A DNA stretch of 64,000 bases from Arthrobacter sp. JZ12 (lineage in GTDB: Bacteria; Actinomycetota; Actinomycetes; Actinomycetales; Micrococcaceae). The position numbers were made by a program, and so were the translations under genes. A model generated the notes under the pieces. The model saw only the letters and a program-made list of their open reading frames with translations. It did not search any database and was not told where the DNA came from. Below, in pieces: positions 35,816 through 39,955 of the stretch. The stretch lies in contig NZ_CP045246.1 of the NCBI RefSeq assembly GCF_035189165.1, positions 3,162,001 to 3,226,000 on the forward strand, read 5' to 3'. The number at the start of each line of letters is the position of its first letter. Within the stretch, counting starts at the first letter, position 1.

Positions 35816-36007
35816 TCAGCGCCACAGGTTGTCCGCCCATGCCGCGTCCCGCAGGTAATCACGTGCAGCGCCCACTTCCCACAGTTCACCTTGGGAGGCG
35901 ATCACGCCCATTCCACGTAGGTTTTCGACGGTATCCGGCGAACAGCCGAGGGCTTCGCTGAGGTCCTGCTCGTCAGCGGCGAGAATGACGTCCTTGTTGT
36001 GTGCCAT
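35816..36007 (-). CDS. Small HTH-like protein at the end of the peptide operon
   Basis: ATG at 36007 follows GGAAAGGAAAG and gives 63 residues; a longer frame lacks a start signal. The middle, LSEALGCSPDTVENLRGMGVIASQGELWEVGAARDYLRDA, has the spacing of a short excisionase-type helix-turn-helix with wing, although diverged. It starts 50 bp after the SpaB_C-like gene on the same strand, so it is probably the third gene of the operon headed by the repeat peptide. Its role is unknown; a DNA-binding accessory or a small binding partner is possible. Confidence 0.6.
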   Translation of the reverse strand: MAHNKDVILAADEQDLSEALGCSPDTVENLRGMGVIASQGELWEVGAARDYLRDAAWADNLWR

Positions 36008-36057: not shown

Positions 36058-37017
36058 TCAATTCCGGTTGAACAATTCCCGCTCGCGTTCAGCGCTCCAA
36101 GTCCGGGCATAAAGCCCCAGTACTGCTTCCTCGCGGGAAGTAAACCCGAGTCGGTTCAAGGTCATGTGTGCCTGGTGCACCGTCAGATGCTGGGCGCTGC
36201 GGCTCACGCGGGCTTTGTCTGCCCGGTAGAGGTAAGTATCGATTGCACGGAACCAGCGCCTGCGCCAGTTGTGAACCGCGGATTCGGCAGCCGTCGCAGC
36301 CATGAGGCCCTGGAAAGCCGGCGCCTTGGCGCTGACCTGGTTGGCCATCGCCTCCCGGACTGCCTGACCCCTGGTTCCAAGGTCTGGGGTGCAGGTCTTG
36401 AGATGGCTATCCCAGTAATAGTCCCAGGAGATCCGCCGGCGGTCCGGCCAGCTGGCGGAGCGGGGTCCCTTCACCATGCTGCGGGCGGAGTCAAAGAGAA
36501 GGAGTGAGGCAAACGCCGAGCGGTTATGCATTTTCGCGAAGCGTTGGGTGCCCCAGGCAGCAAGTTCGGAGGAAAGCTCAAATACTTCCTCTGCCAACTG
36601 CAGCCCTTCGACGCCACCGTACTTGAAAAGTTCGGCCTCAAGCTGGGGATCAGCTTCCTCTACCCCACGCAGGTAATAGCCGTTCGTTGCCGGGGTTGAT
36701 ACGGACTGTCTGGACTGCAAGGAAGCGAGGGAGCACTCGTTCCGCTTCAGCAATACCCGATGGACTGCCTGCAGGCGATCGATGGTGGCGGGTTCGGCGA
36801 GGATGTGCAGACGCACCTGAACCGCAGTCGGTTCCACACTTCGCGTGTAGAACCATCGGTCGGCTCGCAGTACGCGGGCCTGCGCCACCAGCGGGGTAAC
36901 CAGGTCTCCGATGATGCCGTCCGCTACATCGAAGCCGCCTGCTTGAGTGGAGAGATGCCACCATTGAGTGCCGCTTGCTGTTCGTGAGGCGGTTCGAACT
37001 GCAGCCAGCTGACTCAT
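36058..37017 (-). CDS. Stand-alone SpaB_C/thiopeptide-type bacteriocin biosynthesis protein
   Basis: The 319-residue protein begins QWWHLSTQAGGFDVADGIIGDLVTPLVAQARVLRADRWFYTRSVEPTAVQVRLHILAEPA. This matches the opening of the SpaB_C/TIGR03891 fold: the WWH start, the WFYTR motif and the following beta strand that reads VRLHI. The C-terminal part is helical (LTVHQAHMTLNRLGFTSREEAVLGLYA). Known members are the glutamate-elimination half of class I lanthipeptide dehydratases and the [4+2] pyridine synthases of thiopeptides. The glutamylation half (LanB N-terminal domain) is missing from the window. GGAAGGATCCC precedes the ATG, and the gene lies 100 bp downstream of the repeat-peptide gene. Its reaction is unknown. 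Confidence 0.75.
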   Translation of the reverse strand: MSQLAAVRTASRTASGTQWWHLSTQAGGFDVADGIIGDLVTPLVAQARVLRADRWFYTRSVEPTAVQVRLHILAEPATIDRLQAVHRVLLKRNECSLASLQSRQSVSTPATNGYYLRGVEEADPQLEAELFKYGGVEGLQLAEEVFELSSELAAWGTQRFAKMHNRSAFASLLLFDSARSMVKGPRSASWPDRRRISWDYYWDSHLKTCTPDLGTRGQAVREAMANQVSAKAPAFQGLMAATAAESAVHNWRRRWFRAIDTYLYRADKARVSRSAQHLTVHQAHMTLNRLGFTSREEAVLGLYARTWSAERERELFNRN

Positions 37018-37117: not shown

Positions 37118-37252
37118 CTACTTGGGCCAGTCCCAGCTAGCGGAGATGGTCTTCGGCCAGTCCCAGCTCGCTGCCCCGACAGCAGGAGTTGCGGGCGCAA
37201 GAGCTGCTGCTGCGACAAGGAGGCCGGCGGCTGCGCCGATGATCTTCTTCAT
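37118..37252 (-). CDS. Secreted 44-residue peptide precursor with duplicated ASWDWPK
   Basis: ATG at 37252 has GGAAGGGA 8 nt upstream and the frame ends with TAG at 37118-37120. The product starts MKKIIGAAAGLLVAAAALAP, a Lys-Lys plus Ala-rich Sec signal peptide, with a likely signal-peptidase site after VGA (residue 27). The predicted mature peptide is ASWDWPKTISASWDWPK: two identical heptapeptides separated by TIS and ending at the stop codon. Two of the seven codons differ synonymously between the copies. There is no Cys. The gene heads a minus-strand operon with the SpaB_C-like gene and is divergent from a TrmB-LuxR regulator. I infer a signalling or antimicrobial peptide; its activity is unknown. 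Confidence 0.75.
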   Translation of the reverse strand: MKKIIGAAAGLLVAAAALAPATPAVGAASWDWPKTISASWDWPK

Positions 37253-37359
37253 TTAGACGTTCCCTTCCGTCAGGTTCAAGAGACGCGGTCCCGCTCTCCG
37301 TCGAGCCGGTGAATCCAGCATCTGTGCCGGAGGCTGAGCTTGTCCAGCTGGGGAGATGC

Positions 37360-37514
37360 CCTATTCAGGACATGGCCTAATGAGGACAGGAGCACAAAAA
37401 GGCACGGCGCGCGGGGGGCTCCCGAGTGGTTACCAAAGCGCGTAGTTCCGCTATTTAACTGCGATGAGTCGCGAGATTCAGTGCTGCCTGGAGGTGTGTG
37501 TCATTAATAGGACA
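37360..37514 (+). repeat. Three AGGACA-type elements, candidate operators
   Basis: CCTATTCAGGACA (37360-37372), CCTAATGAGGACA (37376-37388) and CATTAATAGGACA (37502-37514) share an AT-rich left half and an identical AGGACA. The first two are 16 bp apart, close to one and a half helical turns; the third extends into the palindrome GACATGTC. Their place between peptide gene and regulator makes them candidate binding sites of the LuxR-type domain. Confidence 0.5.
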
Positions 37515-37594
37515 TGTCATGTTTTTACACGGCGGTTTCAGGGGTAGAAATCGCGCAGCCGGACAGCCGGCTGATACGGCGTCTGTTCGCCGGT

Positions 37595-37638: not shown

Positions 37639-38607
37639 ATGCTCGACGGCTTATCCATTGAGCTATATCGCTACGCAGTGGGCCATCCAGGCTGGAGCAG
37701 GCCTGAAGCCTCGGAGGCGCTTGGGTACACCCTACGGGAGATCGACTCGGCGATGGAAGCGCTGGTTCAACGGAAGCTTCTCAGCGAACAGGGTGACTCC
37801 AGTCAGGGGTTTGTGGCGGTCTCGCCTGACGTTGCCCTCGCCGACCTGGTTGATGCCGACGAGCGGGCCGTGCAGGATCTGAAGGCCCGCATAAGTGCGC
37901 GGAGAAGGGAACTGTCAACTCTCGTTCCCACCTACCTGGAAGCGCGGAAGAACGTCATCACGAGTTCGTCTGTGGAGACCCTTGAGGATCCGCATCTCAT
38001 CCACCGCGTATTGATAGATTACGGGCGGGACGTCACCGAGAAGGTTCTCATCGCCCAACCGGGACAAGGGTCGACGGCGGACGTTCAGGAAGAAAATATC
38101 CGCAAGGATCTGGAGTTGCTTGGCCAGGGCGTTGAGCGCAAGACGCTCTACGACATCAGCACGCGGGACCATGTGCCTACGCGGAAAGCGGTCGCTGCCA
38201 TCACGGCAGGCGGAGGGAAGTTCGGCGCCCTGCCCCGCGTCCCCCTCCGTATGCTGATCTTCGACCGGAAGCTCGCCCTCGTGGCTCGGCAACTGAGGCA
38301 TGATGACAAAGCAGCCCTGGTGGTGCGCGATCCCCATCTCATCCACATCTTCACCCAGCTATTCGAGTTCGCCTGGGAGCTGAGCGAGCCGTTCCTGGTG
38401 GACGACCAAACAGCATCGCCGTTGAACAGCACGCAGAAGGCCATCCTGAAGGGCCTCGCAGCAGGTTATTCCGATGAGGTGATTGCCCGGCGGCTGGATA
38501 TCAACGTCCGCACGTGCAGGCGGCACATTGCCGGGATGCTTGATGCGCTCAACGCTGAAAGCCGGTTCCAGGCCGGTTACAAGGCTCATCAGGCCGGCTG
38601 GATATAG
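37639..38607 (+). CDS. TrmB-LuxR hybrid transcriptional regulator
   Basis: The 322-residue protein starts at ATG behind GGAAGGAAACCCG. Residues 1-60 resemble a TrmB-type winged helix (IELYRYAVGHPGWSRPEASEALGYTLREIDSAMEALVQRKLL), the middle (about 75-250) is a helical plus phospholipase D-like region without a recognised sensor, and residues about 262-322 are a LuxR/GerE HTH (LNSTQKAILKGLAAGYSDEVIARRLDINVRTCRRHIAGMLDALNAESRFQAGYKA). No acyl-homoserine-lactone or receiver domain is present. It is divergent from the repeat-peptide gene, so it may sense the peptide or a derivative. The function is inferred from context only. Confidence 0.78.
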   Translation: MLDGLSIELYRYAVGHPGWSRPEASEALGYTLREIDSAMEALVQRKLLSEQGDSSQGFVAVSPDVALADLVDADERAVQDLKARISARRRELSTLVPTYLEARKNVITSSSVETLEDPHLIHRVLIDYGRDVTEKVLIAQPGQGSTADVQEENIRKDLELLGQGVERKTLYDISTRDHVPTRKAVAAITAGGGKFGALPRVPLRMLIFDRKLALVARQLRHDDKAALVVRDPHLIHIFTQLFEFAWELSEPFLVDDQTASPLNSTQKAILKGLAAGYSDEVIARRLDINVRTCRRHIAGMLDALNAESRFQAGYKAHQAGWI

Positions 38608-38653: not shown

Positions 38654-39955
38654 GTGACTTCTCAGGACGAACTGGAATCGACACAGCTCCCCGCGGAAAC
38701 TGAAGCCGCCCTCGAACGCGCCGTAGAGTCAGCTCACCGGCACGAGCTGCTGTTTTCGGAGCGCGCAGCCAATATCAAGCAGTCGGCAGTGCGGGACGTC
38801 TTCGACATCTCCATTCGTCCGGGGCTCGTCTCGCTCGCAGGTGGCAGCCCCTACTTGAAGTCGCTACCCCTTGATGACCTGGGGCGTACAGCCGAGCGCA
38901 TCATTGCCGAGCACGGCCTCGAGGCCCTGCAATATGGCGGCGGGCAAGGCATGGAGCGGCTGCGCCAGCAGATCTGCGACGTAATGGCCGCCGAAGGGAT
39001 CCTCGACGCCGACCCGGCCGACGTCGTCGTAACCACCGGTTCCCAGTCAGCACAGGACGTTGCGGCGAAAGTGTTCTGCGACCCCGGCGACGTGGTCCTC
39101 TGTGAAGACCCCACCTACGTGGGGGCGCTGAACACCTTCGAGGCCTACCAGGTCGACGTGCAGGCAATCGAGATGGATGAGGAAGGCCTCGATCCGCACC
39201 GCCTGGAGCAACGCATCAAGCAGCTGCTGTCCGAGGGCCGCCGGATCAAACTGCTCTATACGATCCCGAGCTTCAACAACCCCAGCGGAATCACCATGGC
39301 TGCCGAGCGCCGGCAACGGATTGTGGAGATCTGCCGCGAGAACAACATCCTGATCGTCGAGGACAACCCCTACGGCCTCCTGCGGTTCGACGGCAACCCC
39401 CTGCCGCCCATGCGCGCCGGACACCCTGACGACGTCCTCTACCTCGGATCGTTCTCGAAGATCTTCGCTCCAGGCGTCCGCCTCGGATGGGCCCTCGTGC
39501 CGCGCCACCTCCACCGACGGTTCTACCTCGCCTGTGAGGCCGTGGTTCTTTGCCCGTCTCCGCTCACGCAGATGCTGGTCTCCGCCTACCTGGCCGAGTA
39601 CGACTGGCAGGGCCACCTGGTCAAGACCCGTGAACTGTACAGCGAGCGCTGCGCGTCGATGCTCAGCGCCCTGGGACAGCACCTGCCCGACGGCGCGTCA
39701 TGGACCCGCCCGGACGGCGGATTCTTTGTCTGGGTGACACTGCCGCAGGGAGTGGACACCTACCCTCTGCTCTACCAAGCGATCGACGCCGGCGTCGTCT
39801 TCATCCCCGGGGCGGCCTTTACCCCCTCGGATGAACCCTCCAACAAGCTGCGGCTTGCTTTCAGCGCAGTGTCGCCCGAGGAGATCGAGGAAGGCATCCG
39901 CCGGCTGGCCCCCATCCTGCGCGCCGCCATCGAGGAGCGCTCCTCCCGGAACTGA
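38654..39955 (+). CDS. PLP-dependent aminotransferase (2-aminoadipate/LysN-like, class I/II)
   Basis: The 433-residue enzyme starts with GTG. The fold-type I features are LVSLAGGSPYLKSLP, the cofactor strand VVTTGSQSAQDVAAKVFCDPGDVVLCEDPTYVGAL, LLYTIPSFNNPSG, IVEDNPYGLLRFDG and YLGSFSKIFAPGVRLGW, where the Lys of SFSKIF binds PLP. It resembles MocR-type aminotransferase domains but lacks the GntR DNA-binding part. Substrates of this group are 2-aminoadipate, aromatic or branched-chain amino acids. It converges on the branched-chain oxoacid dehydrogenase operon (5 bp between stops); a role feeding 2-oxoacids to that complex is possible but unproven. Confidence 0.88.
   Translation: MTSQDELESTQLPAETEAALERAVESAHRHELLFSERAANIKQSAVRDVFDISIRPGLVSLAGGSPYLKSLPLDDLGRTAERIIAEHGLEALQYGGGQGMERLRQQICDVMAAEGILDADPADVVVTTGSQSAQDVAAKVFCDPGDVVLCEDPTYVGALNTFEAYQVDVQAIEMDEEGLDPHRLEQRIKQLLSEGRRIKLLYTIPSFNNPSGITMAAERRQRIVEICRENNILIVEDNPYGLLRFDGNPLPPMRAGHPDDVLYLGSFSKIFAPGVRLGWALVPRHLHRRFYLACEAVVLCPSPLTQMLVSAYLAEYDWQGHLVKTRELYSERCASMLSALGQHLPDGASWTRPDGGFFVWVTLPQGVDTYPLLYQAIDAGVVFIPGAAFTPSDEPSNKLRLAFSAVSPEEIEEGIRRLAPILRAAIEERSSRN

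What the first reader, a model, noticed from the sequence alone, without database searches (positions are those of the whole stretch)
37118..37252. Overlooked secreted peptide precursor with two perfect ASWDWPK copies
The 44-codon minus-strand frame has a good ribosome-binding site, a clear Sec signal peptide and a predicted mature sequence of 17 residues made of heptapeptide, TIS, heptapeptide. Repeat-bearing short secreted precursors are typical of pheromones or of modified peptides with several copies of the product. Automated gene finders would probably miss it, and an overlapping out-of-frame shadow hides it. Trp-Asp-Trp-Pro-Lys is not a motif I know from described bacterial signals.
Basis: partly seen in the sequence, partly recalled or inferred. 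Interest (0 to 1): 0.92.

Follow-up and report, generated by a model that had tools for sequence, protein, structure and literature searches.

The report
Likely tryptophan peptide signal in Arthrobacter
A tiny overlooked gene makes a short, probably exported peptide carrying a conserved Trp-Asp-Trp motif; it sits next to its probable sensor gene, and similar peptide and sensor gene pairs occur in Streptomyces, which points to a peptide signalling system that I could not find described.

Summary
The 44-codon frame at 37118-37252(-) encodes a Sec-type precursor with two ASWDWPK copies. It belongs to a conserved Arthrobacter cassette: TrmB-like/LuxR regulator, divergent from peptide - stand-alone Lant_dehydr_C (SpaB_C) protein - 62-63 aa protein. 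49 of 49 named cassette loci encode a W[DEG]W peptide; 0 of 17 SpaB_C paralog loci do. The mature part is under strong purifying selection. One clade lacks the signal peptide (MKSWDWF, 7 codons). Two sites of one operator motif lie between regulator and peptide in 43 of 43 regions fitted; in the own genome exact matches occur only there. Regulator relatives outside the family, without SpaB_C (0 of 80 loci), lie divergent from signal-peptide ORFs with C-terminal, often repeated Trp motifs: repeats 8 of 43 against 0 of 289 controls; 9 of 12 plasmid records opened later. Best reading: a self-regulated Trp-peptide pheromone sensed by a TrmB-LuxR regulator. SpaB_C is not a normal dehydratase here. 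Ligand binding, processing and transport are inferred.

The parts
37118..37252 (-). precursor peptide gene, 44 codons plus stop
37172..37252 (-). Sec-type signal peptide, residues 1-27 (MKKIIGAAAGLLVAAAALAPATPAVGA); cleavage after VGA is inferred
   Evidence: sequence; kept in most relatives, absent in the citreus/koreensis clade
37151..37171 (-). first ASWDWPK copy
37121..37141 (-). second ASWDWPK copy
37262..37268 (-). ribosome-binding site GGAAGGG of the precursor gene
   Evidence: sequence; equivalents in relatives
36058..37017 (-). stand-alone Lant_dehydr_C (SpaB_C) protein, 319 aa
   Evidence: PF14028 E 7.9e-19; fold like TsrL/TbtD/MibB
35816..36007 (-). 63-aa protein, variable N-terminus, conserved Trp-bearing tail (YLRDAAWADNLW here)
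37639..38607 (+). divergent regulator, 322 aa: TrmB-like winged helix and PLD-like sensor region plus LuxR/GerE helix-turn-helix
37497..37523 (-). operator, regulator side (TGACATGTCCTATTAATGACA core 37499-37519)
37364..37390 (+). operator, peptide side (GGACATGGCCTAATGAGGACA core 37368-37388); a weaker overlapping opposite-strand match lies at 37355-37381
38654..39955 (+). class I/II aminotransferase downstream of the regulator; neighbour, membership uncertain
   Evidence: PF00155; on the same side in 46 of 46 named loci with the regulator adjacent, within 200 bp in 42 of them

Best explanation
The cassette is a self-contained peptide-signalling circuit. The precursor is made and, in most members, exported by Sec. 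Signal peptidase and a further protease release one to several W-[D/E]-W peptides (here ASWDWPK or the 17-mer). The peptide re-enters or is kept in the cell and binds the TrmB-like sensor region of the divergent LuxR-type regulator, which sits on two like operators, one in front of its own gene and one in front of the peptide - SpaB_C - small-protein operon, and so drives an autoinduction loop. SpaB_C and the 62-63 aa protein are an accessory module that binds or alters the Trp peptide; they are not part of the Streptomyces-type versions. SHOWN: gene reality, conservation, cassette, conserved operator motif, co-inheritance, association of the same regulator family with Trp peptides elsewhere. 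INFERRED: that the regulator binds the operators, cleavage, export and import, ligand binding, role of SpaB_C and of the small protein, output.
For: 49/49 named cassettes encode a W[DEG]W peptide, 0/17 SpaB_C paralog loci do. Purifying selection. Of 295 family genomes, 62 have the regulator at E<=1e-100 and all 62 have SpaB_C; 58 of these 62 have the small protein. Two operator-like sites in 43/43 fitted intergenic regions, 100-152 bp apart, median 133; in 4 regions not used for fitting both sites score 19.9 or more. The window's sites score 36.7 and 28.3 against a best of 14.9 in 430 shuffles, 5.3 elsewhere in the 64-kb window, and none above 15 in 400 kb of control DNA. In the own genome the only two exact matches lie here. 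Regulator = TrmBL2-like region + LuxR HTH. Relatives of the regulator outside the family sit divergent from signal-peptide ORFs with Trp near the C-terminus (20/43 against 33/289 in controls, p 2.6e-7) and with repeated Trp tetramers (8/43 against 0/289, p 4e-8), e.g. 3x DTGWG, 2x GVIGWD, 2x DLPWT, 3x FDWG. Plasmid records opened after the idea was formed: 9 of 12.
Against: No binding, secretion or response was measured. I saw no transporter or protease in the conserved cassette. One Arthrobacter clade has no signal peptide, so export by Sec cannot be general. In 41 of 68 regulator loci outside the family I recognised no Trp peptide (labels by eye), and 3 of 12 plasmid records had none. On the regulator tree the divergent-Trp label by itself is only weakly clustered (15 changes against a shuffled mean of 18.2; 17 of 500 shuffles as low). 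The Trp criteria were set after a first batch had been partly seen, and some of the 20 of 43 look spurious by eye. In 2 of 43 regions the second operator scores (12.1, 14.5) are no better than the best shuffle. The regulator model has low global confidence (pTM 0.48). No wider regulon is visible. The function of SpaB_C is unexplained.
Confidence: 0.6

Rival explanations
1. RiPP pathway: SpaB_C chemically modifies the WxW peptide or the small protein's RDAAWADxLW tail, and the product is an antibiotic, a cofactor-like molecule or a modified signal; the regulator is only pathway-specific.
For: SpaB_C has the fold of lanthipeptide/thiopeptide enzymes. The small protein has a variable N-terminus and a conserved Trp-bearing tail, and its start overlaps the SpaB_C stop by 4 nt in 11 of 48 loci. 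In an unnamed family f24 a SpaB_C gene lies in a thiopeptide-like cluster that also holds a secreted peptide ending in a Trp motif.
Against: No Lant_dehydr_N match in the own genome nor in 37 of 38 genus genomes, 0 of 9 across genera (a run in which nothing rang anywhere and the tool warned of it). No conserved Ser, Thr or Cys around WxW (23 hand-picked peptides). Regulator-peptide pairs outside the family have no SpaB_C at the locus (0 of 80 loci).
Confidence: 0.25
2. Transcription-attenuation leader peptide that senses charged tRNA-Trp through closely spaced Trp codons and controls SpaB_C.
For: Short ORF with two close Trp codons upstream of a gene; 7-codon forms such as MKSWDWF. Two of the seven folded stretches (L109, L077) fold somewhat better than shuffles (z -1.7 and -1.9).
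Against: No terminator-like site in the spacer of the window; the other five folding z-scores lie between -0.6 and +0.8. Signal peptides, repeat copies, the conserved acidic residue between the Trps and single-Trp forms in regulator relatives do not fit.
Confidence: 0.03
3. The exported peptide is an effector in itself (antimicrobial, surface-active or morphogenetic) made under LuxR control, with SpaB_C and the small protein as immunity or processing factors.
For: Secreted in most members, Trp-rich, often repeated; some Streptomyces pairs lie beside biosynthetic genes (MbtH/NRPS; class III lanthipeptides).
Against: Tightly constrained short unit, operators found only at this place in the own genome, regulator co-inherited in 62 of 62, leaderless 7-residue forms.
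Confidence: 0.1

Closest known systems
RRNPP peptide systems (PlcR-PapR, NprR-NprX, Rgg-SHP, ComR-XIP)
   Same: Short propeptide gene next to the gene of a cytoplasmic DNA-binding regulator, C-terminal short signal, Sec leader in many and leaderless forms in some (features of those systems recalled; the two-gene definition of RRNPP was seen in the search listing of PMC10075063).
   Different: The regulator here matches TrmBL2 plus a LuxR HTH and no TPR protein was among the listed matches; the phylum is Actinomycetota; the precursor often holds several copies; SpaB_C and the small protein have no counterpart that I know.
TrmB/TrmBL2 regulators of archaea
   Same: Winged helix plus PLD-like sensor region (TrmBL2 E 9.8e-15; profile match over positions 18-251, E 2e-4).
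   Different: Fused to a LuxR HTH; the TrmB ligands known to me are sugars (recalled).
Stand-alone SpaB_C enzymes of thiopeptide and split class I lanthipeptide pathways (TsrL, TbtD)
   Same: Same domain and fold.
   Different: No glutamylation partner found, no Ser/Thr/Cys-rich core; a LanC cyclase was not sought.
BldK-imported 655-Da signal of Streptomyces coelicolor
   Same: A presumed peptide signal of Streptomyces (PMC9640686, passages); Trp peptides of the kind found here are candidates.
   Different: No link was tested; the original purification paper was not held.

Membership tests
Class I lanthipeptide / thiopeptide biosynthesis | Lant_dehydr_N (glutamylation) partner in the genome | tested here: not met
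   no match in the own genome nor in 37 of 38 genus genomes; the 38th shows the search can ring; 0 of 9 across genera, with the tool's warning that nothing rang
Class I lanthipeptide / thiopeptide biosynthesis | SpaB_C (Lant_dehydr_C) domain and fold | tested here: met
   PF14028 E 7.9e-19; TIGR03891 44 bits, below its cut-off of 48.45; Foldseek TsrL E 1.7e-7
Class I lanthipeptide / thiopeptide biosynthesis | precursor core rich in conserved Ser/Thr/Cys | tested here: not met
   position before WxW is S, V, N, I or A in 35 units of 23 hand-picked peptides; no Cys in them
Class I lanthipeptide / thiopeptide biosynthesis | LanC cyclase | not tested
   -
RRNPP quorum sensing | TPR-fold receptor | tested here: not met
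   receptor candidate matches TrmBL2 and LuxR HTH proteins in sequence and fold searches
RRNPP quorum sensing | propeptide gene adjacent to the gene of the regulator | tested here: met
   46 of 49 named cassettes; in the other 3 genomes the regulator is elsewhere in the genome, about 9 kb away in the one looked at
RRNPP quorum sensing | peptide imported by an oligopeptide permease and bound by the regulator | not testable with these tools
   -
TrmB-like regulators | TrmB winged helix plus PLD-like sensor domain | tested here: met
   the Pfam TrmB match itself is below its cut-off
LuxR (GerE) HTH regulators | GerE HTH domain | tested here: met
   PF00196 28.8 bits, cut-off 23.5
Attenuation leader peptide | terminator/antiterminator between leader and first gene | tested here: not met
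   no terminator-like site there in the window; weak or no folding signal in 7 stretches of 6 sources

The most novel reading that the evidence does not exclude
A widespread class of actinobacterial peptide pheromones that I found nowhere described: short exported, often repeat-bearing peptides whose activity lies in a Trp motif with a nearby acidic residue (WDW, DTGW, GDMGW, GDLPW, DDQW), each sensed by a private TrmB-LuxR receptor encoded divergently. In Streptomyces some such pairs sit beside antibiotic-type genes; in Arthrobacter the circuit gained a repurposed lanthipeptide-enzyme domain and a second Trp-tailed small protein. Some of these peptides could be among the unidentified oligopeptide signals of Streptomyces (e.g. 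the BldK substrate; a speculation with no test here).
Probability: 0.45. Interest if true: 0.95.

Novelty: new variant of a known kind. Interest (0 to 1): 0.85.

Why it matters
Linear peptide pheromones sensed inside the cell are known to me from Firmicutes; [quoted passage not shown] A second, unrelated receptor fold with a defined peptide, a candidate operator and soil-bacterium hosts would make peptide communication in this phylum directly testable, and would give a handle on silent antibiotic clusters, since some Streptomyces pairs lie beside NRPS, lanthipeptide or AfsA-hotdog genes. It also gives an orphan lanthipeptide-enzyme domain a new context.

Tried and rejected
Rejected: chance ORF (conservation and codon-level selection); attenuation leader; ordinary lanthipeptide or thiopeptide; a known curated family for the peptides (no Pfam or NCBIfam match above cut-off). 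RevU, a LuxR regulator that binds a beta-carboline in Streptomyces, was considered and set aside: it carries Walker motifs, so it is another subfamily (PMC7311520, passages). Led nowhere: the 63-aa protein has no relative with a solved structure (best E 0.76); its weak LT-IIB match in Pfam (E 0.014, below cut-off) is taken as chance; SpaB_C has no match in the plasmid collection; the 17 paralog SpaB_C loci have no WxW peptide, though some have short ORFs ending FWG or SWG. A test of regulator-peptide co-evolution was not done. Literature: nine searches brought up no description; the library holds open-licence PMC papers only, so this is not proof of absence from print.

Full report
OBSERVATION. 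The frame at 37118-37252(-) reads MKKIIGAAAGLLVAAAALAPATPAVGAASWDWPKTISASWDWPK. It has a GGAAGGG ribosome-binding site and two 21-nt copies that differ at two bases. Neither Pfam nor NCBIfam has a match for it. Overlapping frames exist on both strands.

IT IS A GENE. The downstream SpaB_C-like protein was searched in 295 genomes of the family: 65 have a match, in 11 of 32 genera. In a collection with names, 66 loci were found, nearly all Arthrobacter. Of these, 49 carry the regulator and/or the small protein (46 with the regulator adjacent, 48 with the small protein) and 17 are SpaB_C paralogs without them. All 49 have an upstream ORF with W[DEG]W (1 unit in 29, 2 in 17, 3 in 2, 4 in 1); none of the 17 does. 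One of the 49, L102, has one intact SWDWPK and a second copy out of frame (by eye). For the window clade (5 sequences) pN/pS is 0.06, and 0.029 in the mature part; for the agilis clade (11 sequences, one from the mislabelled contig L108) 0.26 and 0.23. Third codon positions hold most substitutions (143 of 167 and 639 of 1148 pairwise differences), and SWDWPK is written in 10 ways.

FORMS OF THE PEPTIDE. Searches show: a signal peptide followed by one to three (S)WDWPK; (A)NWEWPK copies; four (L007, L076) or six (L005) copies of WDWPQ (counted); single AIWDWKN and AIWGWPQKT; single AWDW or IWDW at the very end; and, in the citreus/koreensis clade, forms with no signal peptide: MKSWDWF (7 codons), MKKATAPVSIKSWEWF, MTKVWDWI, MTSKVWDWL. 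L075 also has hardly any signal peptide in front of three copies. Three more distant family members have less regular candidates (IYDWPTVA in L055, IWAWPESWP in L060, none clear in L056). In a hand-picked set of 23 peptides with 35 WxW units the middle residue is D 27, E 7, G 1, and the residue before the first W is S 17, V 7, N 5, I 3, A 3. So the acidic residue between two Trps is what is kept, not the Ser that a lanthipeptide dehydratase would need.

THE CASSETTE. Layout in the window: regulator 37639-38607(+); divergent operon precursor 37118-37252(-), SpaB_C 36058-37017(-), small protein 35816-36007(-). In the family, 62 of 295 genomes have the regulator at E<=1e-100 and all 62 have SpaB_C; 3 genomes have only a SpaB_C match (one 36% identical, two weak at 2.6e-10 and 8e-4); 3 others have only a weak regulator match near 1e-33; the small protein is found in 58 of the 62. 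In three named genomes where the regulator is not adjacent it is present elsewhere, about 9 kb away in the one inspected. The small protein has a variable N-terminus and a tail with R53, D54, A56, W57, A58 and W62 in 24 of 24 aligned sequences, and its start overlaps the SpaB_C stop by 4 nt in 11 of 48 loci. It may itself be a ligand or substrate.

OPERATORS. A 27-position profile (core KGMCATGKCMnnWWnnKGMCA) was fitted to 43 regulator-peptide regions: the window and 42 of the 46 named loci with the regulator adjacent. Each has two sites, 100-152 bp apart (median 133; 34 of 43 within 120-145), one near each gene. The procedure always reports two sites, so controls matter. 430 shuffles of the window's region gave a best score of 14.9 against 36.7 and 28.3 for its real sites; the rest of the 64-kb window gives at most 5.3; 400 kb of control DNA gave none above 15. 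In 41 of 43 regions both sites beat the best shuffle; in two the second site scores 12.1 and 14.5. In the four named regions that were not used for fitting both sites score 19.9 or more. The window itself was part of the fit. Across 37 genomes of the genus, exact pattern matches occur in 33 by my count of the listing; with one mismatch allowed many extra hits are at background level, since the backward control pattern gives similar numbers. In the own genome the only two exact matches are at 3199368 and 3199499, that is 37368 and 37499 of the window. The circuit therefore looks private; no wider regulon is visible at this stringency.

THE REGULATOR. It matches GerE (PF00196) at its C-terminus. 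Its profile matches TrmBL2 over positions 18-251 at E 2e-4. The predicted model (pLDDT 80.8, pTM 0.48) finds TrmBL2 (E 9.8e-15) and PLD-like proteins. A TrmB-type sensor fused to a LuxR HTH is a plausible intracellular ligand receptor; ligand binding is inferred.

SAME REGULATOR FAMILY ELSEWHERE. With the regulator profile, 140 of 394 genomes of the class have a match at 1e-30, while the SpaB_C profile finds 9 of 394 at 1e-15. I examined 68 regulator loci outside the family: 28 given, and 40 chosen by me from its list for spread. None of these 68, nor of the 12 plasmid loci below, has SpaB_C within the fetched stretch (0 of 80). Divergent from the 68, signal-peptide-like ORFs have Trp in the last 7 residues in 20 of 43 cases against 33 of 289 in 20 control stretches of 20 kb from the same kind of genomes (p 2.6e-7), and repeated Trp tetramers in 8 of 43 against 0 of 289 (p 4e-8). 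A few of the 20 look spurious by eye (L143, L145, both of L194). The criterion was made after the first 28 loci had been partly seen. In the 40 later loci alone, with the criterion, 6 of 9 divergent signal-peptide ORFs have Trp in the last 6 residues. Read by eye, 20 of 68 loci have a divergent Trp peptide, 7 more have one nearby, and 41 have none that I recognised (labels used). On the regulator tree the four labels together need 20 changes against a shuffled mean of 38, but that owes much to the Arthrobacter clade; the divergent-Trp label alone needs 15 against 18.2, with 17 of 500 shuffles as low. Trp-peptide loci occur in both halves of the tree.

HOLD-OUT. Of 121 plasmid records with the regulator, 25 were listed and I opened 12, choosing among those with spread and annotation. 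Nine have a divergent short ORF with a Trp near the C-terminus, eight of them annotated only as hypothetical protein: DDEWHVGCP, DDQWGVAHP, DDQWGAACP, DDRWELTCP, DDTSWGG, DTSWGWGG, TAWGTGECP, three DTGWGAP (S. globosus, beside MbtH and NRPS genes), and one unannotated, EDDLGWG. Three have none that I recognised. The DDRW example is annotated from a start that leaves little of a signal peptide. Five of the 12 lie next to an AfsA-related hotdog gene, one of them without a recognised peptide.

SpaB_C. The fold is that of TsrL, TbtD and the C-terminal part of MibB and MadB (model pLDDT 88.1). Yet Lant_dehydr_N has no match in the own genome and in 37 of 38 genus genomes; nine genomes across genera gave none, a run in which the tool warned that nothing rang anywhere. 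The one positive genome, G248, also carries a second, separate and weak SpaB_C match. The canonical glutamate-elimination role is therefore unlikely. What SpaB_C does (binding, cleavage or another modification of a Trp peptide) is open. In family f24 a SpaB_C sits in a thiopeptide-like cluster with Ser/Thr/Cys-rich precursors and, nearby, a secreted peptide ending in DMWG, DKWI or DEWI.

MECHANISM AND RIVALS. I rate an autoregulated Trp-peptide pheromone circuit most likely (0.6), a RiPP product next (0.25), a secreted effector 0.1, attenuation 0.03. Attenuation is poorly supported: there is no terminator-like site in the spacer, and of seven folded stretches five have z-scores between -0.6 and +0.8 and two -1.7 and -1.9.

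LITERATURE. Nine full-text searches brought up no description, in a library of open-licence PMC papers only. The 2016 review of quorum sensing in Actinobacteria (start of abstract and passages) names gamma-butyrolactones and cyclic or modified peptides. The uptake of a 655-Da presumed signal peptide by BldK is described in PMC9640686 (passages); a link to the present peptides is speculation.

Noticed in passing
L108 (WNZI01000025.1): A contig deposited as Vibrio cholerae strain 35D carries the whole Arthrobacter cassette; it looks like contamination of that assembly.
   Followed up: no
L244, L245, L246: Thiopeptide-like clusters in an unnamed family: short precursors ending in SASCPVSSASS-like tails, split LanB, SpaB_C, a secreted peptide ending in a Trp motif, and a large regulator that looks SARP-like to me (names recalled, no family search).
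   Followed up: partly
window 38654-39955: A class I/II aminotransferase lies downstream of the regulator in 46 of 46 named loci with the regulator adjacent, within 200 bp in 42; by position and length it also seems to stay with the regulator in L248, where the rest of the cassette lies about 9 kb away.
   Followed up: partly
L237, L313, L314, L316, L317: An AfsA-related hotdog gene sits next to the TrmB-LuxR regulator on five Streptomyces plasmids, a possible meeting of butyrolactone-type and peptide signalling.
   Followed up: no
L031, L247: The citreus/koreensis group has up to seven SpaB_C matches in one genome, some near each other, without regulator or small protein beside the extra ones; some have upstream short ORFs ending FWG or SWG.
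   Followed up: partly
L183: A secreted peptide with four GNTWPG repeats lies near, but not in the divergent position of, a TrmB-LuxR gene.
   Followed up: no
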